A DNA stretch of 64,000 nt from Vitis vinifera (Eukaryota; Streptophyta; Magnoliopsida; Vitales; Vitaceae): contig NC_081818.1 in assembly GCF_030704535.1 (NCBI RefSeq), positions 29,592,001 to 29,656,000 on the forward strand. The letters run 5' to 3'. Under the pieces are notes generated by a model. The model was given only the letters and a program-made list of their open reading frames with translations. It was not told the DNA's origin and did no database searches. Positions 3,501 to 54,060 of this stretch are shown in pieces. The position numbers and the translations under genes are program-made. The stretch's first letter is position 1; every line of letters begins with the position of its first letter.

Positions 3501-3514
3501 TGGCTCTGATACCA
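3501..3514 (-). other. primer binding site (initiator tRNA-Met)
   Basis: On the minus strand this reads TGGTATCAGAGCCA, directly after the LTR end. It is the standard match to the 3' end of plant initiator tRNA-Met, which primes minus-strand DNA synthesis. The same 14 bases occur in both viral leaders at 46917-46930 and 52505-52518. Confidence 0.95.
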
Positions 3515-8135: not shown

Positions 8136-9965
8136 TCATAACTGGCCTATTATTTCTACTATAGATGTGTAGGTACCCATGATGCCAGCTGAAATACCCA
8201 TTAACACAACCCCAATTATAATCACTAGTTCGACTCCAAATTTGTGGTAAATGCCTGAAATCTTCAAATAGCATAAGCATGGCAACAAGATTGAAGCTGG
8301 GACACTTAATAAAGCTCCCACCAGTGACATGAGAGACCCAAAAAATGGCACTGTCAGAGCTACAATGATGGTGCTGAATACCAAGGTGCTTCTTATTATA
8401 AGGCTAAATGGTCTTTTCTTGTAGTAGTATGGGAGCCAATTTTCAGTAGCATTCACAATTGGTGTAACCATCAATGCATATTTGGATATGGGATTGACCA
8501 GAGTAGTATATATGGCGATCCTTGAGCTAAGCTTCTCAATTGGAAGGTTCAAGGTTATTTGTGATTGAACATTTGAACCAAACATCAGGTACCCTAAAAT
8601 TGCCATTGCTGCATAAGTGATGGTGCAGAAGATGAAGCATACAAGGAGGACCTGCAATGAGAAATGTAGTATTCAAGGTTAGTAACCACAAACCAAACTC
8701 AGTTGAAGTTTATAAAATTCACCCTAATTAAGAGTGCCTTTGGCAGTATTTCTAAAAACATTTCATAAAAACACATTTTAAAATTATTTTCAAAGTTACT
8801 CTAAAAAAAAAAAAATGGATAAATAGATAAGATTTGATAGAATTCAAAATTTGTTTTTGAATTCAATGGATTAAAATAGAATCGAGATAATTCTCCATGG
8901 TTTGAAATCCTTATCTTTTTCCAACAATCAAGTTCCATCTACACATAGGATTCTAGTTTCTTTGAAAAAGGAAACTGCCAACACTTGCTACAGATGCTTT
9001 ATGTTCCACAGATATTTATCAGAATTATAATTTGATTTTTGTCCTATATATGTGTTCAAGCGAAAAGACCAGCGTCGCATCACTGAAAAATTGGACCTGT
9101 AAAAAATAATTGAAGATCTCAAACTTACATTAGAAAATTGATGCTTCTTCCTCATAGAAGTGTACAAGGTGGGGAAGACCGGATGGGCACAATAACAGAA
9201 GGCATATAAGCTAACAGCAGTGGGGATTCCTTGCCAATTTAGACTTGTTCCCTTCTCATCAAATCCAACTCCATCAAAGGCCCCGGTCCATAGAATTGAG
9301 CCAAGAATGATGATACAAGCTAAAACACCGCTGGCTGATATATAAGAAAGAATACTGAGGTTGTTCACCCAGACAGAAGGCAAAATAACAAGGCCCACAA
9401 TGATTATGAAGCTTTGTCTCCCATCAATCATTAATCCCCAAATCTCAAGCCCCATGTTGGGAAACAGATTATGTAGATTATCCCCTTCGAGGATTAGAAA
9501 GCCTGTTGCAACCAAGTAGAGCTCGGTATACATGAAAACAGATACCAGTAATCTTCCCTTCTTCCCAAATGCTCGCTCGCCAACATCAGGGTAAGTTCGG
9601 ATATTCGGATGGGCATCCATACATCTTCTGAGTAGCAAGCCTGTGTAGAAAGTTGCAGTGGCGATAACAAGTAGAAGAACCAAGCTCAACCACCCTCCCG
9701 ATGAAAGGGCATATGGGATGGAAAGGATCCCAACTCCTGATCATAAAGCATAGTCAAAGAATTTGGTGTTCAGTTCCTTAGTCACAAACAGATCATATTT
9801 CAGAGATAAGAGAGTGGCATCAGAAAAAGATAAACCTGATAAAGCATTGAGTCCATTGAAACAGGTCTTGAAGAAAGAGGTAGAGCCCACATCTTGCTTT
9901 CCACCGTTGGACTCAATGTCCTCCACTTTGGTGAGAGTGAACCCATCACGCTGTTCAGCCTCCAT
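8136..9965 (-). CDS. vacuolar amino-acid transporter, AVT1-like (Aa_trans family)
   Basis: Exons: 9836-9965, 9129-9736 and 8136-8651. Introns are 99 and 477 bp, both GT-AG, and the sum is 1254 nt or 417 residues. The exon 1/2 junction yields GLNALSGVGILSIPYALSSGGW, the conserved first transmembrane segment of the AAAP/AVT family. About eleven hydrophobic segments follow, including the conserved YCAHPVFPTLYTSM block before the exon 2/3 junction. AVT proteins move neutral amino acids across the tonoplast by proton exchange; substrate and location here are inferred from the family. The acidic N-terminal tail (EAEQRDGFTLTKVED) is typical. Length is normal and no frame damage is seen. It is a tandem paralogue of the copia-interrupted gene at 3776-3938. 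Confidence 0.9.
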
Positions 9966-24577: not shown

Positions 24578-26895
24578 ATGGCCACAACAGATCCAAATCT
24601 CAGCAACTCAACTTCCATAAACGAGTTGACCACAGCACTGCACCACCCAGATTCCCAAAACTCAAACCCATGTTTTCTCTGGAGGCTCTTTCTAGAACAC
24701 TACCCACCTGGTTTTCTCAGAAAGGTATATCACAAATCTCCATACATGCATACGGGTTTCTTATTCTTCTTCTCGAGGCTAGGCTTTTTAAAATCTCATG
24801 TATTAATCCATCATCTTTTCTGGAATTATACATGGTTAACGTGAAGCACATGCAGATGGGGGTGTTTTCTTCTTTTTTTTCTTTTCTTTTTCCTGAGAAA
24901 ATTGTTTTCTAGAGAAACAAACATAGTTTGGAAAATGGCGGGCATCTGATGTTGGAGATGGGTTTTGAGTAACAGGTGGTAGCAGAGGTAATAGCAACCT
25001 ATCTGTTGGTGTTTGTGACATGTGGGTCTGCAGCTCTGAGTGCGAGTGATGAACAGAGAGTCTCAAAGCTTGGAGCATCGGTTGCAGGTGGACTGATAGT
25101 CACAGCTATGATCTATGCAGTGGGTCACATCTCCGGTGCACACATGAACCCTGCTGTCACTCTAGCTTTTGCTGCTGTTAGGCATTTTCCATGGAAACAG
25201 GTAACAGTTTTTCTGCAACTCCCCCAACTGCCAATTTCTAACGTGCGCCTTGGTCGGCGGTTCATTCTAGATTTCATCATCTGCAAGTGTGTGATGACTA
25301 ATCATGCATTGGTTTCATGCATAGCTGGCCACACTAGCTGTGTGGGCTCAGTCCAGACAGACTTTGTTGGGCCCACCCATTAATCAGAACCCATAATCAT
25401 AAATATGGACCCATGGAATTCAATGCAACCAACAGTTGGATTCATTTGGGCCACGACCACGTGCAATGGACCAAGTTCCTTTCTTGTCAGCTCGCAACTG
25501 ACATGTCCACGTATGTCTAAACCTTGGGGTAAAACCGCTTAATTTTGTTCACTCTTTGGGCGGGTCACATTTATTTTCTTTACCACCAGATCTTTTATGA
25601 AAAACTTTATTATAAAAAATTAGTTAGTGAAGGACATAGCAGGATTGATACATTTATTTGTACTCTAACACAGTGTTTGTTTTTTTATTTAATTCTAAAT
25701 AGAATCTTAATGCTTAATAACGTTAAATATTAGGTTGTTTGTCTTTATAATATTTTATTTTTATTAAGTATTAAAAAATAAAAAAAAATCAATATATTAT
25801 TTTTTCTATTATTTTGACTTTTTCTATTTAATAAAAAATCTATAACAAGTCATAAAAAAATAGAAAAACAAACAACCTAATTTCTGAAAAGAAATTGTTT
25901 TCAGCAAAAAGCCAAAAAATAAACACCACCAATCTATGTGCTTATACCATTCATTCAACAGTTCAAATTTCACCATACCATAAAATTTTCCATTCAAGCG
26001 TTTATATCAAAAATAGCTCTTAGCGATTTCAAACATACTATGAAAGTTTATTTTTAATTAATTAAAAAACAAACTAGTCCTCCATAAAAACACTTATAGA
26101 AGTTTCATAGACAAATGAATCGGGCAATGAAATATGGAAAATGTAGGTATAGCAAAGGACAAATGCACCTCAAATACCATGACGAACCAAAAAACTTAAG
26201 CAGCAGTATTTTCATGTAGGTCCCACTATACGCAGCAGCCCAACTAACAGGAGCAATTGGAGCTGCATTTACGCTGCGTGAGCTGCTGTACCCGATCAAG
26301 CATTTAGGCACTACAACTCCTTCTGGAACCGAGATTCAAGCTTTGGTCATGGAGATAGTCGTAACCTTTTCAATGATGTTCATCACCTCTGCTGTTGCCA
26401 CTGACACTAAAGCTGTAAATACTCGGTTGTTCAAGATTTTCCCACCCTTTCCTTTTTCTTTAACCTATATCTGTTTTTCCATTTTGGCTTTCATAGATAG
26501 GAGAGCTAGCAGGCATAGCAGTTGGTTCAGCAGTATGCATAACTTCCATCTTGGCAGGGTAAGCACATGAGCCCATAGCAAGCATTTTGATTCCATACTC
26601 TGAAGCCATGGAACTAACTGATAGCATAGTCATTTGCAGACCAGTATCAGGTGGCTCTATGAACCCAGCAAGGACTCTAGGGCCAGCGATTGCCAGCGCT
26701 GACTACAAGGGGATTTGGGTGTATGCGGTTGGACCAGTATCAGGCACACTACTGGGGACATGGTCCTATAATTTCATTCGGGTCACAGAGAAGCCAGTGC
26801 AAGCAATATCTCCTCACTCATTTTCACTCAAACTATGCAGAATGAGGAGCAATGCCGGGGAGATTTCCAGCAAAGATCCTCTGAATCATGTGTAA
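24578..26895 (+). CDS. NIP2-1: NIP2-type aquaporin, predicted silicon (silicic acid) channel
   Basis: Exons: 24578-24724, 24976-25200, 26220-26414, 26497-26558 and 26640-26895; all introns are GT-AG, giving 294 residues. It has the major-intrinsic-protein fold: six membrane helices and two NPA half-helices, [13 protein letters not shown] (NPA 107-109) and SGGSMNPAR (NPA 218-220). By alignment to the family, the aromatic/arginine filter is G87 (VAGGL), S200 (AVGSAVC), G215 and R221. This GSGR set defines NIP2 proteins, the Lsi1 class. I count exactly 108 residues between the two NPA motifs, the spacing associated with silicon permeability. NIP2 channels sit in the plasma membrane, typically of roots, and also pass arsenite and boric acid. 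No damage is seen. The ATG chosen is the first in frame and gives a normal family N-terminus. Confidence 0.93.
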
Positions 26896-39300: not shown

Positions 39301-40685
39301 TCTTCTCAGAAAACAAAATGCTGTATTTGTACTTACTGCTTATGTGATTCATCAATCTTTTCAACATATTTGTTGGTTCCAATAATGTCCTCAAGATATT
39401 CAAGAAAACCTTCATCATGTGGTCCTTGAGCCTTTGGCTTCATAAGTGAAATCTGTTCAACCTCACCCTAATAACAGCCAGCAACATGTTACAAGACATA
39501 GATCCACAATTTTTACTGAATTACAAACACTAATAACAAATATCAAACCTGAAGTATTAAAAAACGGTTATTGTCCAAGTCCACACCCTTCCCTTTCAAT
39601 TTCTTGGTGACCTCTGTAAAGTTACTAGGCCGGTCATTAATGTAATACTTAGATGAGTTATCTTGAAATGCAACCCGGGCAATTACAAAGTCGCTTCCAG
39701 GTACAGCTTCATAAGTCCCATCATCCTGAAACCGACAGAAAACTTTTGCTTCATTTTGTAGGCTGCATTTGCTCAAGCATAATCAGATTGGTCTGGAATT
39801 TCTCCTATGTGGATTTCAAAATCTCCATTTTTTCTTTGGAGTTCTTTTCGTCAATCTTAAGAAGTTCAATTCAGCTACAAATAATTGGCACATAAAGAAG
39901 CTAAATATAGAATGCATTCTGTGCAACCAAATGCATCCTTAAAGACAATTTTTCCAAACAACAAAATCCAAGTAAGAAAAACTCAAATACCAGATCAACG
40001 ATTTCTTGAAAATGGACGGAGACGCCTGCACTGTCTAAATTCTGGTGGTTAGTAGAATTGTGAATAAGTTCCGAAACTTTGTTCAGCCGCATCTGTGGAT
40101 CAACATCATGTTGTCCAGCACAAATGAGAAAAACCAACAGGTAACTGACAATGGTATCAGTATCAATTCTTCCCTCCAAACGTAAAAAGAAACTAAAAAA
40201 CCTTACCTGTTTGGCTCGCTTTCCAAAAACAAACAACATGGCGTCAATCACATTGCTCTTCCCACTCCCATTCGGACCAACCACTGCCGAAAAGCTCTGC
40301 CCATCCCAAAATCAAAACTAAAACAAAATGAATCTCTAAAGAAATGCGCATTCTCCCAAATTCAACAGAAAAAAAAAAATCAACAATCAAAAATTTAAAA
40401 GTTCGAATCTTGTATCTAAATATCTAATGCGACAACCCAAACTTCCGATTCCTTTTCTTCCAATTTCTTCCCTTTTTCCCATACTTTCTCAGCAACCAGA
40501 CAGAGAGATAATAGTGAAGAAACCCTAACCTTGTGAAAAGGACCAACACGTTGTTCTCCAGCGTAAGACTTGAAGTTCCTCATCACCATTTCCTTGATGA
40601 ACAGCCTCGGAGCTCTTGACCTTCCCGGACCCGAGTCAGAGCCGTTGCTCACCGACTCCTCCGGCGGTTTCGTCCGGCTCTCCAT
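27367..40685 (-). CDS. SMC4: condensin core ATPase SMC4 (CAP-C)
   Basis: Exons (minus strand): 40530-40685, 40207-40296, 39991-40092, 39549-39725, 39337-39467, 38746-38824, 38506-38663, 38343-38418, 38075-38203, 37861-38005, 36387-36517, 33882-34034, 33607-33796, 33110-33243, 32096-32254, 30917-31225, 30650-30826, 30002-30085, 29715-29924, 29527-29616, 29309-29430, 29067-29222, 28868-28975, 28712-28772, 27929-28063, 27755-27842, 27580-27652, 27367-27487. The sum is 3744 nt, 1247 residues, a normal SMC4 length. Walker A GPNGSGKS is at 59-66; coiled coils flank a hinge at about 560-715; the signature LSGGE is at 1149-1153 and Walker B PLYVMDE at 1172-1178. SMC4 pairs with SMC2 in condensin to compact mitotic chromosomes. 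The first ATG gives MESRTKPP; upstream codons are open but lack an ATG. Intron 23 appears to be GC-AG. Possible E2F control is noted separately. Confidence 0.95.
31590..31661 (-). other. candidate in-frame cassette exon in the SMC4 hinge
   Basis: Inside the intron between exons ending 32096 and starting 31225, 72 nt lie between a plausible acceptor (TTTTTAATGCCTTAG) and donor (CAG then GTATGATTG). They read 24 open codons in the same phase (DYAALYGNNKDQ and onward). Known SMC4 proteins, as I recall them, join the two flanking exons directly (KDIDQ to ATRIAYGG), so I left this out of the main model. It could be alternative, or a chance match. Confidence 0.3.
35065..35130. repeat. 33-bp tandem duplication in SMC4 intron 11
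   Basis: Two adjacent units beginning gacataattgatgtcattg differ by one or two bases. They lie within the longest SMC4 intron (34035-36386, 2352 bp). Confidence 0.85.
35291..35485 (-). mobile_element. tRNA-derived SINE candidate in SMC4 intron 11
   Basis: On the minus strand a pol III A box TAGCTCAATGG (35458-35468) is followed about 30 nt later by a degenerate B box around CTTCAATTTGAGAC (35415-35430). The sequence ends in an A-rich tail (35291-35307). The start GGGGCTTGCTGTGTAGCTCAATGG-like context resembles a tRNA 5' half. It is old, with no clear target duplication seen. Confidence 0.5.
36767..36838. repeat. 24-bp tandem repeat, three units, in SMC4 intron 10
   Basis: Three perfect copies of a 24-bp unit starting gcaccaagcataacaatag lie at 36767, 36791 and 36815, with the start of a fourth. 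A frame crossing it has no coding meaning. Confidence 0.95.
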
Positions 40686-41648: not shown

Positions 41649-41905
41649 TATTATTTATCTTGAAGAGAAGATTTTAACAAAAAAAAAAAAAACTTCAAAA
41701 ATCCATTTTTTCAATCCCTACTATTCTTATATAATAATACAATTATTATAAATATATATTATAAAATTAATTAATATTATTTACTAAATTTAATATATAG
41801 AGAATATACTAGATTTAATATAAGATAAATAATATTTATTTGTTTTTTTTGAATTAAAAAAATATATTATCAATTTCATGTGAAAAATGAGTTTAAAAAA
41901 ATTAA
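41649..41905. repeat. host direct duplication flanking the viral insert, left copy
   Basis: It matches 52877-53132 almost perfectly: I see one base change (atatagagaat against atataaagaat) and a one-base difference in an A run. The sequence is AT-rich host DNA related to degenerate repeats at 53133-54060. The 10,971 bp between the copies is viral. Confidence 0.9.
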
Positions 41906-42124
41906 ATTTTTTTTTTTTAAATTTTTTTTTTTATTATTATTATTTTTTTTTTTTTTTTTTTTTACTTTGCACACCTTCAGATTTCACATACTTTTTACAC
42001 TTTCATACTTTTCTCTTTTTTTTTTTTTTTTTTCTTTTTTTTTTTTTTTTTACTGGATAAACACAAAGAGACAATTGTACAGATATACAGATGTACAAAA
42101 GATTTTTGAAATGTTTTATCTAGA
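41906..42124 (-). other. A-rich 3' end of component 2
   Basis: On the minus strand, after the last stop, short unique words are separated by A runs of up to about 24 bases, ending in further A runs at the host junction. The arrangement and words (TCTTTTGTACATCTGTA, then an A run, then a CTGAAG-type word) match the 3' region of component 1 at 47520-47660, so both components share a 3' sequence type. Confidence 0.7.
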
Positions 42125-43402
42125 TTAACCCATAGGTCCTCCGTAAAGGATAAACTCAGGGTCTACGTATGAATCATCTGATAAGACTGCATCTTCAGAT
42201 GTTTCTTCATTTTCTTGATCTCCAAACTTCTTGAGGGTTTGAATAAGTCCTTGACGATATTGCTCTAAATCAGTAGCGGCTGCTAATGAAGCTTGACATT
42301 TGCTTTTCAAAGTTAGGAATTCTTCTTGAGTCGGTCCTTGAGAAGAACTAGTTGAATCTTTTGAGTTTGATGAACCTGGCCTTGTTGCTATTAATTGCAA
42401 AACCTTCTGTTGACATACAAAATCATGATTGAATTTGTCCCACCATTTGATGCTGAATTCTCTAGAAAGAGATAATGGAAAAGGAAGAGGTTGCTCTTGC
42501 TTCTTGATGATGTTCCATGTGAGAATCCATGGAATTCTTAATCTCGAACAGAACGTCAGGAGTCTAGGCTGAAAGATATTCTGTGATGAAGTCTTGCTCT
42601 TGTAGAAGTTAAATTTCTCTTGAATATCAGGAGGAAATACCGAATCTAGTAGACCAAAGAAAGTCCACCATTTTTGAAACCAAGCAGGAAATTTGGTATT
42701 GCAGCTTCTTGAAAATTGGATGAACCAGGAATGCTGGTAGCTTTGCAAGTAAAACATATTGTACCAAGCATCCATGTAGTCTATGTAATTGTAGCTCATG
42801 GAATGGAAAGGTTGACTAAAAGCCTTGCAAGTGAAGGGTTTTTTATTCCAATCTGCAATGGTCATGACTCTGAGAATTTGACATTTGGAAAAAGTAATCC
42901 TCTGAGGATTGTTTTTGTCAGTGTTATGAGTAATTTCAACCGAATCAGTGTCCACTAAGATGAACTCATAGAATTGACGAGTTTTCAAAGGATCATTTGA
43001 ATTGAAGTTGACTCATTGAGGAAAGATGTAAGGAAGAATTTTAGGAATCTCTTCAAAATTGAACTCTGGCTCAATGAAAGCAATTTCTAGGGTTTTGGGT
43101 TTTTTGACATATTGACTATAAGAATATGAAGGAGAAGGAGACTGAGAAGGAGAAGGTAATGTCGAAATAGTGTTGGGACTGGATTGACTTTGAACAACAA
43201 TATTTTTAGGAGATGATTTAGAAGCTTGAATAAAACTTTTTGAAGGTTGAAGAGGAGGAAAATCTGGACTCAAAACTTGAAAGGAATTTGATGTTTGCAA
43301 AGGAAAAGTAGGACGAACATTTGAAAAGTTTGAAATCATAGCATATGAAGCTTTGGTTTTCTTTGATGAAGAAGGAAGTTGAGGCCTAACGGGAGTACCC
43401 AT
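42125..43402 (-). pseudogene. component 2 second ORF, unknown function, one internal stop
   Basis: The frame opens at 43402, where the ATG overlaps the TAA of the upstream pol frame (TAATG). It runs about 425 codons to 42125 with one in-frame TGA at 43013-43015, giving pieces of 129 and about 290 codons. The first part is Ser/Pro/Gln-rich and looks disordered; the second is rich in Trp, Phe and Tyr (for example FPAWFQKWWTFF) and ends in an acidic tail. I recognise no domain. Florendoviruses are reported to have a second ORF of unknown role, and this fits that position. The TAATG overlap suggests termination-reinitiation coupling. Confidence 0.7.
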
Positions 43403-44400
43403 TAGGATGGAGAAGGATCCTTACCCTGCAAAAACTCCCGAGTAAGGAAGTCAGGAAGGGAATTCAACTCTCCTTTTATAAATTCGATTTCAAAATCAAA
43501 ATTTGAAAGTAAAGCTTGCCATCTTGCAAAAATTTGTTTTGAAACCAAATTTTTAACATCTTTTTGTAAAATATCTTTTGCAGCTTTGCAATCAATTTTC
43601 AAAAGAAATTTCTTGTTTATCAAATCACTTTGAAATTTTGAAATACACAGAATTATTGATAAAACTTCTTTTTTGACAGTTGAATAATTTATTTGAGCGC
43701 CCAACCAGATGCCTGAATGATATCTAACTATATGCACTTGATTGTTATATTCTTGCTTTAATATGCCTCCATAACCTAAATTAGATGCATCTGATTCTAC
43801 AATGAGCAATGCATTTGGATGAGGGATGCTGATGCATGGTAAACGTTTGACTCTTTGTTTAATTTCTTGGACTAAATTAGTATGATGATCACTCCATGCA
43901 GGTGCATTTTTTCTTAGTCTTTTGTATAATGGTTCACAAATGATTCTCAAATCTTTGAAGTAATCAGAAACATAATTTAAACAACCTAAAAATCTTTGCA
44001 ATTGTTTTTTATCTTTTATTTCATCAGGAAATTTGTCAGCAAATTCTATTGACCTTTGAATTGGTTTTGTTTTTCCTTGAAAAATTTCATGACCTAAAAA
44101 TCTGATTTTTGTTTGAAACAATTTCATTTTTGGAGCAGAACAAGCCATTCCATTTGCTTTAATGACATTAAAAAACTTTTTCAAATGAATAAAATGTTTT
44201 TCTAATGAATCAGAAAATACTAAAACATCATCAATGTATACAATTATGAATTGAAAATGAGGATTAAAAATATCATTCATAATATTTTGAAATTCAGAAG
44301 GGGCATTTTTGAGACAAAAAGGCATGACATTCCATTCATAATGACCAAAAGGGACAGTAAAAGCAGTTTTGTATCTATCTTCTTCTCTAATTTGAACCTG
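43402..44400 (-). pseudogene. component 2 pol, distal part: reverse transcriptase and RNase H
   Basis: The same frame continues after the TAG at 44401-44403. It carries the reverse transcriptase catalytic motif YIDDVLVFS near 44240, the thumb/connection region, and RNase H motifs (ESDASNLGYGG near 43790, a KKEVL block and KIDCKAA). The enzyme would copy the pregenomic RNA into DNA and remove the RNA strand. It ends in a Pro/Ser tail at TAA 43402-43404. Because the stop separates this part from the N-terminal reverse transcriptase motifs, it is not expected to work as it stands. Confidence 0.85.
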
Positions 44401-46692
44401 CTAGAATCCTGATTTCATATCAAATTTTGAATAAATGACAGAACTATGAAGTCTTTTGAGTAAATCTTGCTTATTAGGAATAGGGTATCTTATCCATTGT
44501 AATACTTTATTTAAAGGTTTATAATTAATGACTAATCTAGGTGCTCCTCTTTCTATCTCAGCAGCATTTTGAACATAAAAGGCAGCACAACTCCAAGGAG
44601 ATTTTGAGGGTCTAATTAATTTCTTCTTTAATAATGAATCAATTTCTTGTTTGCAATATTCTAAAAGCTTTTCATTCATTTGAATCGGCCTAGCCTTAGT
44701 AGGAATTTTGGACTCATCAAAATTTTGAATGTAAGGCAAACTTATCTCATGTTTCTTTCTTGACCAAAAAGCATTAGGAAGATCAGAACAAATTTCATTT
44801 TGAAAAAGATCTTGAATCTCTTTTATTTTCTTTTTAACTTTATCTTCTAAAAGTTGTTCATCTACCTTTTTATATTGAATTTCTTTTGATAGATAATTTA
44901 TATGAGCTTTCTTTCTTTGAATTAAATTTATATTTTTATTTATTGAATCACTTTGAACTTGATGTATTTCTTTTTTAGTTAATGGATATATAAAGGGAAA
45001 AAATATGGTATTTCCTAATATTGTAGTTTTGACACCTTCATCATTTACTTGAAAAGGGTAAAGTAAGGTAATAAAAGGAGTTTCTAATATTAAAGGTTCA
45101 TTCATATTTTGTACTAATATAAATTGAGTTCTAAAACAATAATTATCTTGACATATATGAACATTTTGAAGTTTATATTCTATTTCTAATTTTCCTTTAT
45201 TTGCAGCAAAAAGTTCTTGTCCTGTTTTTTCATAATATTTAGTAGGAATTATTCCTTCTTGAATACAATTCATATCAGCTCCTGAGTCTATTAATGCTAC
45301 TATTTCTATTTCAAAATCTTCAACTATAATTTTTATATTTGTATACCATCTTTGAAAATCTATTTTTGATATTGTATTTATAAATGATTCTATAGGAGTT
45401 ATTTTATTGGGTATTATTATTCCTAGTTCTTGGTTTTCAGAAGTTTCAGCTAAATCTTGTTTATATTGTATTACGTTTCTAATTTGTTCATTCTCTTGTT
45501 TTATTTGATCATTTTCTTGTTTTATTATTTCATTTTCTAATCTTATTTGTTCATTATCTAATTTTAATTGATTTATTTGAATTTTTATTTCTTTTATTTC
45601 TTCTTCCAAGTCTTTAATGGTTATTGGCCTTTGAGTCTTTTTGAATCTATTATAAATTTCATCCATTGAGTATTGATTAGGTTTGATGTCTTGAGTTTTA
45701 TTTGGATTTTCAGTGAGAATTAAATTTTTTAAATTTTGTAAATAATTTCTTTGTATTTCTTTATCTTGAATTTTGTCTACAACATCAAAGAATATTTGCT
45801 TATCTACTTTTGAAGATATTACATTTATCTTTTTTATTTTATTTTCTAATTTTGATGTTTCATTAATTTCTCTTGGATTTTCTATTTTTGTTGTTATTGA
45901 TTTTTCTGTTGATGATTTTTCTGTTGAAGTTTTTATTTCTGTTGAAGTTTTTATTTCTGTTTCCTCCTCCTCTCCCGGGGCAGAAGAAAACAAAATTTTA
46001 TTAAATTTTGTTTCACTTGACTCTTCTAGATTTGTGTTTTGTTGTTCTAACAATTTTTTATTATGTGGAGAATTTTCTATTGCTTTTCTTGAAGTTAATG
46101 TTGCAATTCTTTTAAGGGGTTTCCTATATTTGAAAAACCAAAGGAAAAAAGGAATAGTCATCTTAACTTGTTGCATATATTTTTCATATTGTTTTCTTAA
46201 TGCATTTCTAACTTGAGGAGGAAGTTGTTGAAAATAATTTCTTTTTGCAGTATTTTCAGGAGAAAAATAATTTGCTTTAATTAATTCTACTTCAGGAACA
46301 AAAGGATTTCTTTTAATGTGTCTTTTCCTAATGATATTTATGTTTAAAGGAGGTTTATCATGAGATAAAATTTTTGACTCAGACTCTTCTTCAAAAAGAG
46401 AAATTTCAGGAACAAAGTTTGAACTATTTTTTAGTTGATTTTCTATTTGATTTAACTCTTCATTAAATTTTGAATTATTAAATTTTATGTGATGACACCA
46501 TGATGATGCAGCTAATGATGCAGCAGGTAATGATGCAGATGATGATGCATTTGAAAATCTCATTAACTTATATGAAGAACTTTCTAAATTATATGCAGAA
46601 CTATTTAATGCAGATGCCGAACTATCATGAGACCTAAGAGATCTGGAAGAACTATTTCTACTTAATTTCCTCATAATATTACTCATTGTCAC
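44401..46692 (-). pseudogene. component 2 polyprotein: leader region, coiled coil, protease, start of reverse transcriptase
   Basis: The 763-codon frame starts MTMSNIMRKLSR, nearly the same as component 1. It then has a Ser/Ala-rich stretch and, at about residues 125-195, a basic/aromatic block shared with component 1 (NALRKQYEKYMQQ, TIPFFLWFFK). A strong coiled coil of repeated EN-type heptads follows (about 370-410). A pepsin-like retroviral protease motif LIDSGAD lies near residue 467, and the N-terminal reverse transcriptase motifs (PRLVINYKPLN, YSKFDMKSGF) are at the end. No movement-protein core is visible. An in-frame TAG at 44401-44403 interrupts reverse transcriptase. Confidence 0.85.
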
Positions 46693-47283
46693 AGAAAATA
46701 ATCACAATTTTATCCTTAATCAATTCAGATAATTTCCTGAACAGGGACCACCACAAGCGGATCAACACGGGACTTACGCTCCTTCTGCTCTTAAACACCG
46801 CTTATCACAGGCTGACCAAACCGTTCACAGGAAATTCAATCCGAACTAAATTAGGACTAAATCTGCGATTAATCACTGTTCCAACTCGTAACACCACTCG
46901 GTTCTCAAGCAAAAAATGGCTCTGATACCATTTGCACCCAGGACGTACAACAGTTCGTGCACGCAATGATTAAGTAATAATTAAGCAATAATTAGCAATA
47001 ATTAAATCTGTCTAATTATCTCCAAGCATAAAAACTGAAATAATTAATGTCTAATGCTGTCTAATTTATTGCAGAAATTTAAGCATAATAACACAATTAT
47101 TTGAATCTGAAAATATTGTTTATTGAAAAATATACCTCGATTACAGAGAGTTGATGACTACAGGTTGTTGACAGCAGAGGAATGACTCTAACTCAAAGAA
47201 ATTTACAAAAGAAAATTTTTGAACTCTCAGAATTTTTTCACTAATTTTTTGAACTCTCAAAACTCTTGAAACCTTCCTAAGCT
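46693..47283 (-). repeat. viral leader copy 2 (component 2)
   Basis: About 590 bp, nearly identical to 52280-52871 at a constant offset of 5588; I noted about five differences. It contains the tRNA-Met primer site at 46917-46930 and several short out-of-frame ATGs, as in the long leaders of pararetroviral RNAs. Confidence 0.9.
46917..46930 (-). other. viral primer binding site, component 2
   Basis: TGGTATCAGAGCCA on the minus strand, complementary to initiator tRNA-Met, which primes minus-strand DNA in Caulimoviridae. It lies about 225 nt upstream of the ORF. Confidence 0.92.
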
Positions 47284-47349
47284 CTCTCTTGGCTGTAGGA
47301 ACTCTTGAACCCTTGCCGACCTCTGCCTTGGGAGGAAGCATTTGAGCCC

Positions 47350-47357
47350 TATTTATA
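47350..47357 (-). promoter_or_regulatory. viral TATA box for component 2
   Basis: TATAAATA on the minus strand in the context GCTATAAATAGGGCTC. A pregenomic RNA start near 47325 is inferred. This sequence is not present in the first leader copy, whose equivalent region is missing at the right edge of the insert. Confidence 0.7.
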
Positions 47358-47519
47358 GCAAAGGCTTTGGGCTATCAAGAAGGCTTTATGCCTTTGATGT
47401 CTTCCACATGTATGCAGGAGGTAAATTTGCTTTCTTCTTCTTCATTTGGTCACATGGGTAATGAGTCATCTTGCTTTTTACTTTAAAGGACGGATTTTAC
47501 TATTCACAAAACACTATTC

Positions 47520-47662
47520 ACTTTTTTTTTTTTTACAAACTGTGCACTGTGCACTTCTTCAGACTTCATATACTGTTCTTTTTTTTTTTTTTTTTTTTTA
47601 CTAGATAATCACAAGAGAGCTACTTTACAGATGTACAAAAGATTCTTGATTCTTGATATCTC
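47520..47662 (-). other. A-rich 3' region of component 1
   Basis: After the stop near 47663 the minus strand has TCTTTTGTACATCTGTA, then an A run of about 20 (plus-strand T run at 47579-47599), a short unique word with two GTGCACAG-type repeats, and a second A run near 47525. It corresponds to the 3' region of component 2. Confidence 0.65.
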
Positions 47663-50600
47663 TTAGCTGAGCATTTCTAAGAGATATTTCTCAAAAGTTT
47701 TTCTGGCTTCTTCTTCAAGGACATATTCTTTTTTATACTTATCAACAAGATAAGTAAATTGAGTTTGAAACAAAAGAGGGACTTCATGAAAGTTATTTGC
47801 AGAGATGATTTTTTGAATATTATCTTCAGTAATGAGATTATAGTTAGAAGAACTATAAATCTCAGAATCAAGGTCTCTTGCAATCATTCTTGATCTCCAA
47901 TGTCTGATTTGTTTTTTGAGGCTGGATTTAGTACAGGGCCAAGGGTCCTCTGTACCAAACAATTGATGTTTTCTCTGATTGGCTTTGAGTAAAATGAGAT
48001 GTTGAGCAGGGTAAACTCCTCCATCATTCGACCATTCAGGAGGTTTACTCTCTATGATGAGTTCAACAGATTTGAAATCATTGATGAAGGCATTTAAAAC
48101 ACAAATAGCTAATTTTCTTCCAAATTTATCAGTTTGATCAGGATGAGAGAAAATCAATTGATAAAGAACTCCATAGTCCATGAGGAGGGTTGGAGTTAGC
48201 TCTATTGACTCATTGTTGAATTTAATGACTATTGGTTTATAACTGTCTAGGTCAATGTTGGCTTTGCATATACTGTAAGTAAGAGCACACTTACAGTCAT
48301 GCCTTTCTAATGGAATTTCTCTACACAAGGGATCGGTCTTTGGACAATTATTATAAGTGTTGTCATAACAAGAAATCCAAGTGAAGCTCATCCCTTGAAT
48401 AGTTATTCCAAAAGTGCTACAGTCAGCAAGAAATTGCATGATATGCTCTTGCTTTGCTTCTCCTGTAGCTTTAGCCTTTTCACATATCATCTGTCTAATG
48501 CTTTCAATAAGGTCCAAATTTTTCAACTTGAAAAATGAAAATTTGGAAATTTGACATTCTTGGTCTTCCTGGGAAAGTTTTGAATCTTCATTTGGTTTTG
48601 AAAGTTCTTTTTGAAATTCATTTTGAAAATCTTTTGAAAATGCATCTTTGGATCCTTTTGCTTTTTTCCTGCAAATGAAATTTTCAAGATCTGTATCCAT
48701 TGGGGTGCAATGTATATCAGAACTTGAAGGGTTAGAAAAACTTTCTAATTTATCATTTAACTGTTTAAAATGGAAAGATAAGGCATTTAAAGCTTCCAAC
48801 TTTTGAATATCACTTTTTGCATTCCAGAGGTTGTCTAAAATGCATTTTTGTGATCTGTCTAAACCTTCAATATCTTTATGAATTCGAAATGACAAATTAC
48901 ATTTAGGAAATACTGGAAGAGTAAATTTCCTAAATGTAATTCTTTCTTGCTCCATCTGTAGACAAAATTTAAATGTTAGTATCTTTATTGAAGAATAAAA
49001 CAAATATCTAATGATTTTATCTTTATCATACCAAATTTGAAAATATATTGCGTTTATGAGAGGAACATAATTTCTAATAATGATGTTAAAATGAGTTTTT
49101 GAATATTTTGAAATCACATTTATTGACTTATATGAGCATGCACAAATACCATCACAATCTTTTTGATTATCTGATTCTTCTTCTAGACTTGACTCTTCAC
49201 TTGATATTTCTTGAGTTATGAGGATTTGATTATCTTCTTCTGATTCATAATTTTCATTTGATTCATCATTTTCTTTATCAATCATTAATCCTATCATTAA
49301 ATTTTTGAGTTTATCACTTATTTCTAATGAATTAATTTTATTTTCTAATTGACAATCTCTTGAATAATGACCTACTTTTCCACATTTATAACAAGTAGGT
49401 GTTTTCTTTTTTAAATTTGATTTATTTGGAGGTTTTGATTTATTAGGAGTAGATTTTACAAACTTCTTTTGAAATTTTGATTCTGTTGAAGGTTTTTTAT
49501 TTTTTATTTTATTTTGTTTATTTTTTCTTTTTGAAGGGGCAACTAATGTATCATAACCGTAATATGAACAAAATTTTCCTAATTCTTTTCTGTTATCTTG
49601 TTTCTCTTTTTTCATTTGACTCTTTAATTTAAGATCTGTACAAAGGGCTAAACCTTCATTATTAACAAAAGTAATTAATTCTCCATATGTTAATGACTCA
49701 TAAGGAATCCTACCATTATGAATATTTCTTATTCTTTGTCTAACCTTTTCTGCAAATAAGGTGGGTAATCCTGATATAAATTTTTCTTTCCAATAATGAT
49801 TTCCACAATCAAGTATTGACATAACTTTGACTAAAAACATATCTTTATACCACTTAAAATCTTGAAGTGTTGGACATCTAAGATTGTTAAGGATTTCAGA
49901 AGTTCTTTCTTGAAAATAGACTGGATCTCCTATAAAATGTTTTGTTATTGCAAATATTAGAGTATTGACAGCATCTTTTTCATATGTTTGGACTGATGTT
50001 CCTTCTTCTTTGATTATTGTCTTTTTTGCATTTAATATATATTCTCTATCATTTTGACTCAAATAATGATCCCACCATCCTTTAAGCAAACCAGTGAATC
50101 CTATGACCAAGGCACCGGCAGCATGAAAGTCAGAATTACTAGTCTTGATTCTATATGCATTAGCAGCCATCATCATTTCATGAAGCAGATTGATTATTTG
50201 ATGTTCACTCATTCCATCTATATTCCATTCATAAAAACTACTACCATCATAACTAGCAGCTAATTGATAATTTCTTTCTTCTAATTGGACATCAGGAAAA
50301 GAGGGTTTTGAATAATAATTTTTTCTACTTACAAAATTATTAGAAATTGCATTGACTGTTGCAGGAGGTTTTACTATTGAATCCGGAGACATTTTGAATT
50401 GTTCTTCTATTTTATTGATTTCTGATTTTCCTTTTGTTATGGTTTGAATTTGATTCTTAGTTTGATTGATACCATTAATATTGAGTTTATCTAATCTGTT
50501 TTGTATTTCTTTTAACATTATTTCTGTTGGTGTGGCTAGTTGAATATTTGATTTTGCAGCATTTATAGGAATAATAAAAGGTTGGTTTGAACACTTAGAA

Positions 50601-50701
50601 GATGATGATGATGATGATGATAAAGTTGAAGAAACTTTTGAAGAAAATTGCAATTTTGATGTTATTTCTCCTATCCTCTCTCCCGAGGCAGAAGAAAACA
50701 A
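47663..50701 (-). pseudogene. component 1 capsid-type polyprotein with zinc knuckle
   Basis: A long uninterrupted frame of 1012 codons. It has a Ser-rich start, a capsid-like region with GLLKGWWDHYLS and EKFISGLPTLFAEKVR (about residues 140-350), a Lys-rich stretch, and a CCHC zinc knuckle CYKCGKVGHYSRDC near residue 440, as in caulimovirid coat proteins. An acidic region follows. From about residue 585, starting MEQERITFRKF, the C-terminal 430 residues show Cys/Trp-containing blocks I do not recognise; this part may originally have been a separate second ORF. It overlaps the upstream frame by 31 nt in another phase, so it is probably not translated from its own ATG but belonged to a larger polyprotein. 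No internal stop is present. Confidence 0.75.
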
Positions 50702-51873
50702 AAATTGAGAAATTTTGTTGTCTGTTGATTCACATGTTGAAGAGAATGATTTGTATAATTTAATTGTTGTTGAATTTGTCTAATGTCTTTGTAAATTATG
50801 GGACTTTGTTCATCTTTAGTTCTTGGAATTTTAAAGGGTGATGCAGCAATTGAATTATTGTCAAAATTGAATTGATGATTATTTAAGGGTGGTTGTGAAC
50901 CTAATTCTGAGGTTATTGTTAAAATTCTTTTTTGAATATTTTCTGAGTGTTTTAAAGCTAATTGGTGTCCTTCTTTATCTCTTAAAGTTATAATTTGTTT
51001 TCTTTGTTTTTTAAGTTTGAAAAACCAATAGAAAAAAGGAATAGTAATTTTCTTTTGATTCATATATTTTTCATATTGTTTTCTTAATGCATTTCTAGTT
51101 TGAGGAGGAAATGTTTGAAAATAAGCTCTTTTTGAATCATTTTTAGGAGAAAAATAATCTGATTTTATCCATTCTACATTAGGAGTAAAAGGAGTCTTTT
51201 TGTAATTTTTCTTATGAATTATGTTGACTTGATTTGGAAACATATCCGAATGAGTAGGAGACACAGGAGGAGATTCATTTTGTTGATAAACAGGAATAGG
51301 AATTTTTGGAGCAAAATTGACACTATTTAAGCTGGCATTTGAAGTAGAAGGTCTTGAAGACACGAAATCTTGATTGAAAGAATATCTAGAGGCTGGAGAA
51401 AATTCTATTTGAATAGTACCATCAGTATATTGAATAATTTTTGAAGGAGTTGTTAAAGGTTTAATAGGTTTTGGATGAGTTAAATCTTTTAATTCCCATT
51501 GACTCCCTTGAGTAATTTCATTCCATTTTAATTTCTTAGGAACAAAAGCTTGAGTATTATTAGGATTATATTGTAATAATAATGTTTCATCTTTAACAGA
51601 TTGACATATAGCTCTAGGATTTAATTGAGTAATCATGACTTTATAATATATCCTATAAATTATTGCTATAGTTTGAGCTTCTTCTACAAAATTCATGTTT
51701 TTAGTTTTAATATTTAAAGTTAGACTAGAAAGTATACTAGGATCATTTATGTTCATAGAAAAGTTTGGAAAACAATTAAAATAAATAGGACCATTAGCAA
51801 GGTTTGAATCTATCATGCTAAGTATTGAATCAGTAAAATTTATAGATCTAGCATCTCTAAGACATGTAAACAT
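50671..51873 (-). pseudogene. component 1 movement protein core and linker block
   Basis: The frame starts within the 30K-superfamily movement-protein core (CLRDARSINFTDS, NGPIYFNCFPNFS, AIIYRIYYKV), the family that helps plant viruses pass plasmodesmata. It continues into a Pro/Ser-rich linker and then a block closely matching component 2 (NALRKQYEKYMNQ, TIPFFYWFFKLKK). It is one frame off from the preceding piece (52279-51893), and a further frame change occurs at 50671-50701 in a T-rich tract near the start of the capsid frame. The first break looks like a small deletion; the second could be decay or programmed. Confidence 0.8.
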
Positions 51874-51892
51874 AGGAATATCTAATCCTAGC

Positions 51893-52279
51893 CTAAGGTT
51901 TTATAGCAACTTGAACTAATCCTATATGAATATAATTAAATTTCTTCTTATGATGATTAATAGTATTTTGACTTAATAATTGAAGACTTTCTAAATTTTG
52001 ATTAAGAGATATAGTTTTTTCTTCAGTTTTTATTGAATAATTTTGATTAAATTCAAAATTTCTTTGTTGATATATTGTATTAATTTTCATGTGAGGAATT
52101 GACCAATTATGAAGTTGACTCTCTATTTGAGCAATATTTATTTCTTGACTATTAACTATATTTTGAGTAAGTGATGATGCAGTAAATGATGCAGATGATG
52201 ATGCAGAACTATCATGGGACCTAAGTGATTTGGAAGAACTACCTCTACTTAATCTCCTAATAATATTACTCATTGTCAC
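51893..52279 (-). pseudogene. component 1 N-terminal region and start of movement protein
   Basis: Starts MTMSNIIRRLSR with a Ser-rich leader segment shared with component 2, and ends in the first conserved words of the movement-protein core (YIHIGLVQV). A stop at 51893-51895 and a frame change separate it from the rest of the core, which resumes in a different phase at once, so the break is a short indel and not a true end. Confidence 0.8.
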
Positions 52280-52871
52280 AGAAAATAATCACAATTTTTA
52301 TCCTTAATCAATTCAGATAATTTCCTGAACAGGGACCACCACAAGCGGATCAACACGGGACTTACGCTCCTTCTGCCCTTAAACACCGCTTATCACAGGC
52401 TGACCAAACCGTTCACAGGAAATTCAATCCGAACTAAATCAGGACTAAATCTGCGATTAATCACTGTTCCAACTCGTAACACCACTCGGTTCTCAAGCAA
52501 AAAATGGCTCTGATACCATTTGCACCCAGGACGTACAACAGTTCGTGCACGCAATGATTAAGTAATAATTAAGCAATAATTAGCAATAATTAAATCTGTC
52601 TAATTATCTCCAAGCATAAAAACTGAAATAATTAATGTCTAATGCTGTCTAATTTATTGCAGAAAGTTAAGCATAATAACACAAATATTTGAATCTGAAA
52701 ATATTGTTTATTGAAAAATATACCTCGATTACAGAGAGTTGATGACTACAGGTTGTTGACAGCAGAGGAATGACTCTAACTCAAAGAAATTTACAAAAGA
52801 AAATTTTTGAACTCTCAGAATTTTTTCACTAATTTTTTGAACTCTCAAAACTCTTGAAACCTTCCTAAGCT
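52280..52871 (-). repeat. viral leader copy 1 (component 1)
   Basis: Nearly identical to 46693-47283. The viral sequence stops at 52871, equivalent to 47283, roughly 40 nt downstream of the predicted RNA start, so this copy lacks the TATA box. Five bases of unmatched sequence (52872-52876) separate it from the host duplication. Confidence 0.9.
52505..52518 (-). other. viral primer binding site, component 1
   Basis: TGGTATCAGAGCCA on the minus strand, the same tRNA-Met site as in the other leader copy, about 225 nt upstream of its ORF. Confidence 0.92.
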
Positions 52872-52876
52872 TTTAG

Positions 52877-53132
52877 TATTATTTATCTTGAAGAGAAGAT
52901 TTTAACAAAAAAAAAAAAACTTCAAAAATCCATTTTTTCAATCCCTACTATTCTTATATAATAATACAATTATTATAAATATATATTATAAAATTAATTA
53001 ATATTATTTACTAAATTTAATATATAAAGAATATACTAGATTTAATATAAGATAAATAATATTTATTTGTTTTTTTTGAATTAAAAAAATATATTATCAA
53101 TTTCATGTGAAAAATGAGTTTAAAAAAATTAA
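52877..53132. repeat. host direct duplication flanking the viral insert, right copy
   Basis: Near-identical partner of 41649-41905. The sequence beyond it differs from that beyond the left copy, so both duplication borders are sharp. Confidence 0.9.
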
Positions 53133-54060
53133 TTTGTTATTAATTTCTTAAAAAAAAGTGAGAAATATTATCTTCAATAGACAATTATATATATATATTA
53201 TAAAATTAAATAATCTTATTTACTAGATTTAATATATATAAATAATATGCTAATTTTAATATAAGATAAATAATATTTATCTATTATTAAAAAAAATTAT
53301 TATTAATTTATTTAAAGAAAACAACAAAATATGAGAAATACTTTATTTAAAAGACGATTTTCAAAAAAAAAAAAAAAATTTCCATTTCCTATTATACTTA
53401 TACAATTATTATAAATATATATTATAAAATTAATTAATTTTATTTACTAATTTCAATATAAAATAAATAATATTTATCTAGTATTTTTCTTTAATAAAAA
53501 AAATTATTATCAATTTATGTGAAAAAATTAAAAATGAGTTTAAAAGAAAAAAAACAAAATTTTTATTAATTTATTAAATAGTTATTTACAAAATAAATAA
53601 TTTTGATTTGTTTTAGTTTTTAAATTAATTTTATTATATAAATTTTAAAATTAAAAATATTAATTTTAAGTTAAAATTTCATTGTAAAATGAATAAAATG
53701 TAAAAAAAATAAATAATTTTAATTGTTCTTAATATTCAATTTTTTTATTTAAATTAATTCAATTAAGTATAACAAATAAAATTAATTTAGTTTCATATTT
53801 TTTTTATTTATAAGATAAATAATATTTATCTATTATTTTTTGTTTATGTGAAAAATGATTTTATAAAAACACAAATTTGTTATTAATTTATTAAATAATT
53901 ATTTTAAAAATAAATAATTTTATTTTGTTTTAATTTTAAAAATAATTTTATTATATAATTTTTAAAATTAAAAATATTAATATTTAATTTAAAATTTCAT
54001 TGTAAAATGAATAAAATATATAAAAAAAAAATTAAATTTCAGTAAAAAAATATCTAAAAG
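53133..54060. repeat. AT-rich degenerate host repeat array
   Basis: Words from the flanking duplication recur with changes, such as attataaaattaa, ttatttactaaattt, ataagataaataatatttatct and gtgaaaaatgagttta. Units are roughly 150-250 bp, beginning near 53150, 53330, 53560 and 53810. The virus therefore entered an existing AT-rich repeat tract. No gene. Confidence 0.6.

What the first reader, a model, noticed from the sequence alone, without database searches (positions are those of the whole stretch)
41906..52876. Two-component endogenous pararetrovirus in one locus
Seen: two gene sets in tandem on the minus strand, each with its own near-identical leader and tRNA-Met primer site. One has movement-protein and capsid regions; the other has protease, reverse transcriptase and RNase H. 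Unit lengths are about 5.6 kb (52871 to 47284) and 5.4 kb (47283 to 41906). Known: most Caulimoviridae keep all of these in one circular genome, and bipartite genomes have been proposed for some endogenous florendoviruses, including in grapevine. Inference: this is a cointegrated bipartite virus, both halves preserved side by side.
Basis: partly seen in the sequence, partly recalled or inferred. Interest (0 to 1): 0.88.

Follow-up and report, generated by a model that had tools for sequence, protein, structure and literature searches.

The report
Both halves of a split grapevine virus
A grapevine chromosome carries, side by side, the two DNA circles of an old plant virus whose genes were split between them; such split viruses were already published from grapevine, but here the start of the two viral RNAs is shared so sharply that it suggests the halves copied from each other.

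Summary
At 52871-41915 (minus strand) lie two head-to-tail caulimovirid units. Unit 1 (5,588 nt) has movement- and coat-protein domains and no detected polymerase. Unit 2 (about 5.4 kb) has protease, RT, RNase H and a second ORF. They share a 98% identical 672-nt leader with a tRNA-Met primer site. The bipartite reading is supported: elsewhere in this genome both units occur alone, as homotandems and in head-to-tail A/B pairs. In the sampled copies of this species none has coat protein just 5' of RT. Coat protein and RT both evolved under purifying selection. But it is not new: Geering et al. 2014 described bipartite florendoviruses and compound A+B insertions in Vitis vinifera, the host here. 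Frames of both halves are broken at this locus. Relatives with coat protein just 5' of RT exist in the genome only as distant species in my sample (59-64% RT identity). Not found in print: the promoters of the two components differ, and identity starts 30-31 nt after the TATA box, at the predicted RNA start; in five compound loci the leader 5' of the primer site matches by locus, not by component. That suggests leader exchange between components. A second, apparently bipartite species here lacks the sharp edge.

The parts
41650..41914 (.). host AT-rich sequence, left copy of a ~264-bp direct repeat that flanks the insert (target-site-duplication-like)
   Evidence: 98.1% to 52878-53141; apart from the last ~10 columns one substitution and one homopolymer length change
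52878..53141 (.). right copy of the flanking direct repeat
47284..52871 (-). unit 1 (MP/CP component; 'component B' in Geering et al.), 5,588 nt, about one full circle length
   Evidence: B-B spacing in the C5 array 5577
41915..47283 (-). unit 2 (polymerase component; 'component A'), about 5.4 kb; its 3' end seems to lack about 0.2 kb of intergenic region (inference)
52200..52871 (-). shared leader of unit 1 (starts just inside the predicted RNA start; no promoter upstream at this end)
   Evidence: 98.1% to 46613-47283
46613..47283 (-). shared leader of unit 2, up to codon ~24 of the ORF
   Evidence: component-specific from the ATG on
52507..52518 (-). tRNA-Met primer binding site, unit 1
   Evidence: exact 12-mer
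46919..46930 (-). tRNA-Met primer binding site, unit 2
   Evidence: exact 12-mer
47350..47357 (-). TATA box of the unit-1-type promoter that precedes unit 2; predicted RNA start ~30 nt downstream
51637..52051 (-). movement-protein domain of unit 1, split over two reading frames
   Evidence: PF01107 in 51893-52288 (weak) and 50671-51900
50992..51174 (-). DUF7588 region of unit 1
   Evidence: PF24496
50009..50251 (-). DUF7746 region of unit 1
   Evidence: PF24925, E 3.7e-30
49604..49912 (-). caulimovirus coat-protein domain
   Evidence: PF22909, E 5e-14
49349..49396 (-). CCHC zinc knuckle
   Evidence: PF00098
47663..48607 (-). C-terminal domain of unit 1 polyprotein; one relative found, in Vitis
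   Evidence: P0121, V. vinifera, 98% over 59% of the 518-aa query; dN/dS median 0.19
46117..46287 (-). DUF7588 region of unit 2, 53% aa to that of unit 1
45109..45339 (-). aspartic protease
   Evidence: PF00077, E 5.5e-7
44083..44400 (-). reverse transcriptase (C-terminal part); an in-frame stop lies just 5' at 44401-44403
   Evidence: PF00078, E 1.5e-22
43498..43896 (-). RNase H
   Evidence: PF17919, PF17917
42125..43420 (-). ORF2 of unit 2, other frame than ORF1, with one in-frame stop

Best explanation
This is a compound insertion of the two genome components of an endogenous florendovirus-type pararetrovirus of grapevine. Each component was its own circle of about 5.5-5.6 kb with its own promoter. 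The polymerase component makes protease, RT and RNase H; the other makes movement and coat protein. Both RNAs carry the same 5' leader with the tRNA-Met primer site, so one RT and one coat protein can serve both in trans. A crossover inside the shared leader joined one circle of each head to tail. The joined DNA was captured in an AT-rich break that left a 264-bp direct repeat. Shown: anatomy, homotandems, head-to-tail A/B pairs, purifying selection on both units, edge of identity at the predicted RNA start in two lineages, leader matching by locus in five loci. Inferred: trans-service, crossover, break repair, and exchange of the leader during replication.
For: Complementary domains. Shared leader and primer sites. 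Many clusters with one component only, and 7 of 71 with RT+CP+MP. Head-to-tail A/B pairs or arrays through the leader in nine of ten places. B-B spacing 5577 in the C5 array, A-A spacing 5476 between RT places. CP 0-4500 nt 5' of RT: 0 of 164 x 125 sampled places; 0 of 20 older RT copies have CP tiles, 8 of 20 show leader-then-polymerase ORF. dN/dS medians: CP 0.09, unit-1 C-terminus 0.19, RT-RNase H 0.10, protease region 0.26. Pure A vs pure B intergenic regions (C5): promoter bins 49-63% identical, then from 30-31 nt after TATA identical at aligned positions through the primer site, with one 8-nt length difference. Leader 250 nt 5' of the primer site: 4.2 differences between A and B of one locus vs 16.7 between the same component of different loci; matching rank 1 of 120.
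Against: The census is sampled: only the best 40 of 338 (RT), 426 (CP) and 137 (MP) DNA candidates were scored. No particle, RNA or infection evidence. Frames broken at this locus. Unit 1 gave no protease hit and no match to ORF2, unlike the published Vitis component B. The polymerase-unit N-terminal region is only weakly constrained (dN/dS 0.67). Of 10 further leader regions fetched as single insertions, 3 showed their own type of promoter, one B unit (L028) the A type and 6 none; one of the three (L027) matched only the last 43 nt before the primer site in the stretch tested. In the second species identity runs through the promoter, so the edge at the RNA start is not general.
Confidence: 0.86

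Rival explanations
1. The MP/CP unit was a satellite or defective DNA kept alive by a complete helper virus, not half of a genome.
For: Relatives with CP directly 5' of RT occur in the same genome (6 of 20 distant RT copies); the authors of PMC4241990 say a helper cannot be discounted.
Against: In the sampled copies of this species CP and RT are each confined to one unit type, both are under purifying selection, each unit supplies what the other lacks, and their leaders match pairwise by locus in five loci.
Confidence: 0.08
2. A tandem copy of one monopartite virus that suffered complementary deletions after integration.
For: Both units keep similar first ~24 codons and a related DUF7588 region, so both descend from one ancestral layout.
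Against: The same two layouts recur at many loci, and the window's flanks match none of the other fetched loci; shared coding regions are only 53% identical in protein while leaders are 98%.
Confidence: 0.02
3. The leader identity between components arose after integration, by gene conversion inside arrays, or at capture, and says nothing about viral replication.
For: The locus-wise matching was measured only in compound loci; the effect goes beyond the primer site by up to ~120 nt (2 of 120 permutations), which simple first-strand transfer does not predict.
Against: Weak: the B leader at C8:23.60 Mb is closest to an A leader on C4 (4 differences), although B and A leaders of C5 follow at an equal 7. 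General A-B identity already begins at the predicted RNA start in the two lineages where both promoters were aligned, C5 and C15.
Confidence: 0.3
4. Assembly artefact joining separate insertions.
For: Repeats are hard to assemble.
Against: The same junction type recurs on C5, C13, C15 and C4 with different private changes; a flanking repeat brackets the whole insert.
Confidence: 0.02

Closest known systems
Bipartite florendoviruses of Vitis vinifera (VvinBV, VvinDV; Geering et al. 2014, PMC4241990)
   Same: Host, component sizes (5.5-6.9 kb), complementary domains, near-identical intergenic region, compound A+B insertions, association with TA-rich sites (passages; sections 6, 7 and part 1 of 12).
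   Different: I had no reference sequence to assign the species; by layout (polymerase unit without MP) VvinDV seems the more likely (inference). Published Vitis component B has a protease and an ORF2-like C-terminus; neither was detected in unit 1.
[quoted passage not shown]
   Same: Two complementary components and mixed loci (6 of 54 in their count, passages).
   Different: Monocot host; sequences not compared here.
Monopartite florendoviruses
   Same: Domain set, tRNA-Met primer, second ORF in another frame in most.
   Different: All domains in one 7.2-8.5 kb circle.
Bipartite begomoviruses (common region)
   Same: Two circles sharing a non-coding region kept alike within a virus (recalled; only a paper listing seen).
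   Different: Unrelated ssDNA viruses; the shared block there holds a replication origin (recalled), here a transcribed RNA leader.

Membership tests
Caulimoviridae | movement protein, caulimovirus coat domain, CCHC, aspartic protease, RT, RNase H; no integrase | tested here: met
   met by the two units together; no integrase family listed
Caulimoviridae | tRNA-Met primer binding site in the leader | tested here: met
   exact 12-mers at 52507 and 46919
Florendovirus (proposed genus) | ORF2 after the polyprotein, other frame, no homologue in other caulimovirids | tested here: met
   42125-43420, 19-nt overlap with the RT frame; 35 relatives, those with a name from Vitis rotundifolia, Mucuna and Stylosanthes, the rest unnamed
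Florendovirus (proposed genus) | RT falls in the florendovirus clade | not tested
   120 of 883 RT relatives listed, 57-96%, named ones from plants but for one archaeal MAG record; no named florendovirus or PVCV reference at hand, no tree built
Bipartite florendovirus components | 5.5-6.9 kb components, A lacks CP, B lacks RT | tested here: met
Bipartite florendovirus components | intergenic region >90% identical between components | tested here: met
   met for the transcribed leader (98.1%), not for the promoter part
Bipartite florendovirus components | component B carries a protease | tested here: inconclusive
   no RVP hit in unit 1 at E<=1; only a 23-residue blastp match to the protease piece, E 0.066
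Bipartite florendovirus components | component B C-terminus homologous to ORF2 of component A | tested here: inconclusive
   no significant match by blastp, phmmer or profile comparison; fold models too poor to compare (pLDDT 39 and 35)

The most novel reading that the evidence does not exclude
The two components exchanged their RNA leaders again and again: strong-stop DNA made on one component's RNA was transferred to the other's RNA. This would keep the stretch from the RNA start to the primer site identical while promoters and genes drifted apart. It would mean that both RNAs were reverse transcribed in the same particle, so this was a co-packaged segmented pararetrovirus rather than two separately packaged circles.
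Probability: 0.3. Interest if true: 0.75.

Novelty: new member of a known kind. Interest (0 to 1): 0.5.

Why it matters
Geering et al. wrote in 2014 that no extant member of the Caulimoviridae has a divided genome and that this layout is unique among viral retroelements, so the case for one rests on fossils such as this. This genome lets the claim be tested by sequence alone: both components recur alone, as homotandems and paired, both are under selection, and their leaders carry a record of recent exchange. If singletons confirm the leader pattern, the question whether the two RNAs shared a particle becomes answerable from fossil DNA.

Tried and rejected
Fold comparison of ORF2 and the unit-1 C-terminus: models too poor, no fold search made. 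RT relatives in the viral collection: none. Idea that the edge at the RNA start is a general rule: rejected, since the second species shares promoter and MP region too. Idea that exchange stops exactly at the primer site: not supported, the effect persists over the next 122 nt (2 of 120) and is gone at 123-244 (48 of 120). Long target-site duplication as a general feature: weak or untestable at other loci because little flank was held. Genome-wide census of the unit-1 C-terminus and the leader, and a flank search in the whole genome, were asked for but not answered; the flanks were compared only with the 75 fetched loci. Dating by clock was not done; the flanking repeats differ by about one substitution and one run length in 264 nt.
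Full report
Host. The window is contig 14, 29592001-29656000, of a 495.6-Mb genome in 21 contigs. Proteins of the insert find Vitis vinifera at 98% (P0121, over 59% of the query) and Vitis rotundifolia at 68-80%. I take the host as grapevine. That size and contig count fit a complete grapevine assembly is recalled, not a tool result.

Anatomy. Pfam on pieces of the open frames gives MP, DUF7588, DUF7746, caulimovirus coat domain and CCHC knuckle in unit 1, and DUF7588, retropepsin, RT and RNase H in unit 2. The leaders are 98.1% identical over 672 columns, each with an exact tRNA-Met 12-mer. Outside the leader the two units share little: 83% over 186 nt around DUF7588, short stretches near the ORF ends, and 53% identity over 120 aa. 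At this locus unit 1 changes frame twice, once inside MP, and unit 2 has in-frame stops in RT and in ORF2. The insert is bracketed by a 264-bp host direct repeat (88% AT; right flank 92%, left flank 76%). Related but weaker repeats lie next to it (82% and 69%), so a pre-existing tandem repeat is possible.

Census. DNA pieces of RT, CP and MP were searched in the whole genome; the best 40 of 338, 426 and 137 candidates were scored. Clustering within 15 kb gave 71 clusters: RT only 22, MP only 15, CP only 12, CP+MP 10, CP+MP+RT 7 (this locus included), CP+RT 3, MP+RT 2. I fetched 20 regions covering 12 places, chosen mainly because they were compound. In a tile map, head-to-tail A/B neighbours are linked through a leader on C1, C2, C4, C5, C6, C10, C13 and C15; on C11 the two units adjoin without one; the window's own junction makes nine of ten. 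C9 has B units and an A unit in opposite orientation, C17 belongs to another species, and C4:17.2 Mb holds A units only in the part fetched. The C5 array also has A-A and B-B neighbours and inverted junctions, one of which lies inside genes. ORF-start spacings are 5577 (B-B, C5), 5532 (B to a B fragment, C9), 5578-5596 (B to A) and 5535-5560 (A to B); in the C5 array 4970 and 4972 (A to B, A units shortened inside) and 5956 (B to A). RT-to-RT spacing for A-A is 5476.

Monopartite test. Against 164 CP places (150 of 542 candidates plus 14) and 125 RT places (one listed twice), no CP lies 0-4500 nt 5' of an RT on the same strand; the nearest is 4517. This test is limited by sampling. For 20 distant RT copies (59-66% identity) I fetched 1.7 kb 5' of RT: 6 of 20 do have DUF7746 and CP there, 9 have MP and DUF7588 without CP, one has MP, DUF7588 and a DUF7746 fragment, 4 nothing recognisable. 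Those 6 are at 59-64% and are other species; whether MP lies further 5' was not looked at. For 20 of about 45 unfetched copies closer to the window species (69-94%), 1.6 kb 5' of RT showed leader-then-polymerase ORF in 8 of 20; the rest are truncated, rearranged or without match, and none has a CP tile beyond T-rich matches of about 40 nt. So this species is consistently divided in the sample, and a monopartite ancestor is visible only as distant kin.

Selection. Nei-Gojobori dN/dS over pairs with at least 15 differences (pairs are not independent; pairs with fewer were dropped): CP median 0.09 (14 sequences, 55 pairs), unit-1 C-terminus 0.19, RT-RNase H 0.10, protease region 0.26, polymerase-unit N-terminal region 0.67. 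Most of both components therefore coded for useful proteins while the virus lived.

The shared leader. I compared the intergenic region between two A units with that between two B units in the C5 array. Identity is 49-63% in three promoter bins (85% in the bin next to the ORF end), 91% in the bin at the predicted RNA start, 100% of aligned positions from there past the primer site with one 8-nt length difference, 98-99% to the ATG, 89% over the first ~24 codons and 50-57% beyond. Unbroken identity starts 30-31 nt after the first T of each TATA box, and the two C15 junctions show the same edge. Poly(A) words lie 203-287 nt after the TATA. So the shared block is the 5' leader of the viral RNA, not the whole intergenic region. 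Of 10 further regions fetched as single insertions, L022 and L023 (A) and L027 (B) have their own promoter type, L028 (B) has the A type, and 6 have none; L027 matched only 43 nt of the 269 nt tested before the primer site. The published account says the intergenic region is nearly identical and its text has no hit for leader, transcription start or template switch; a search for caulimovirid, template switching, leader and bipartite gave no paper on this point among the ten listed of 42 (listing only).

Matching by locus. In the five loci with usable A and B leaders (C5, C15, C4, C9, this one; one leader of each kind per locus), the 250 nt before the primer site differ by a mean of 4.2 between A and B of the same locus, and by 16.7 both between the same component at other loci (25 pairs) and between A and B of other loci (25 pairs); the true pairing ranks 1 of 120. 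The B leader of C13 was left out because its upstream part is not leader. The first 122 nt after the primer site give 2.2 vs 5.0 (2 of 120), the next 122 show no effect (48 of 120), and the first 74 nt of the ORF are component-specific, 8.8 vs 2.7. Three sub-windows of the 250 nt rank 1 or 2 of 120. Outside compound loci, the B leader at C8:23.60 Mb is closest to an A leader on C4 (4 differences), with A and B leaders of C5 next at 7. This fits repeated exchange of the leader between components in the virus; first-strand transfer explains the edge at the RNA start but not the effect beyond the primer site, so DNA recombination or conversion in arrays remains a rival.

A second species. An RT family at 68% identity forms a tandem array on C17 with period 6220 and a polymerase unit of MP+DUF7588+protease+RT+RNase H with no CP hit. 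MP/CP units with long open frames lie beside such RT units on C1 and C8, so it too looks bipartite. Its leader, the promoter from about 100 nt before the TATA, and the first part of the ORF are 91-100% alike between A-A and B-B regions, apart from length differences (one of 207 columns). It split more recently, or is kept alike over a longer tract; the sharp edge is so far a property of the window's species only.

What is known. Geering et al. 2014 (PMC4241990; sections 6, 7 and part 1 of 12 read, other passages by search) described florendoviruses, bipartite VvinBV and VvinDV, and compound A+B insertions in V. vinifera. The 2023 review PMC10377300 and CAULIFINDER PMC9719215 (passages) repeat the bipartite claim. 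I could not open their supplement, so I cannot say whether this very locus is on their list. The finding is real and correctly read, but its headline is known; the leader result is the part worth following.

Noticed in passing
G000 C5:25056001-25106000 (L001-L005): Array of at least ten A and B units in both orientations, with A-A, B-B and A-B neighbours; two of the A copies share a ~0.6-kb internal shortening.
   Followed up: partly
G000 C17:355001-375000 (L018, L019): Second, apparently bipartite species: polymerase unit of 6,220 bp in tandem, keeps MP, no CP found.
   Followed up: partly
G000 C12:12943461-13057506 and C4:16930208-16966178: A third coat-protein family with open frames up to about 1,488-1,492 aa in dense clusters; no RT of the sampled list lies close by.
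   Followed up: no
window 47663-48607: Domain with one relative found (Vitis; the search looks only at proteins of similar length to the 518-aa query), yet under purifying selection (dN/dS 0.19).
   Followed up: partly
window 41650-41914 and 52878-53141: 264-bp direct repeat flanking the insert, long for a target-site duplication.
   Followed up: partly
L058 (G000 C18:24449591-24451291): One distant polymerase unit keeps a DUF7746 fragment between DUF7588 and protease, like a half-finished loss of the coat region.
   Followed up: no
window 8136-9740 (-), 24973-25383 (+), 39901-40311 (-): Host gene pieces: amino-acid transporter, aquaporin (MIP), SMC N-terminus.
   Followed up: no
window 3503-3514 (-): Another exact tRNA-Met primer 12-mer, perhaps of an LTR retrotransposon.
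   Followed up: no
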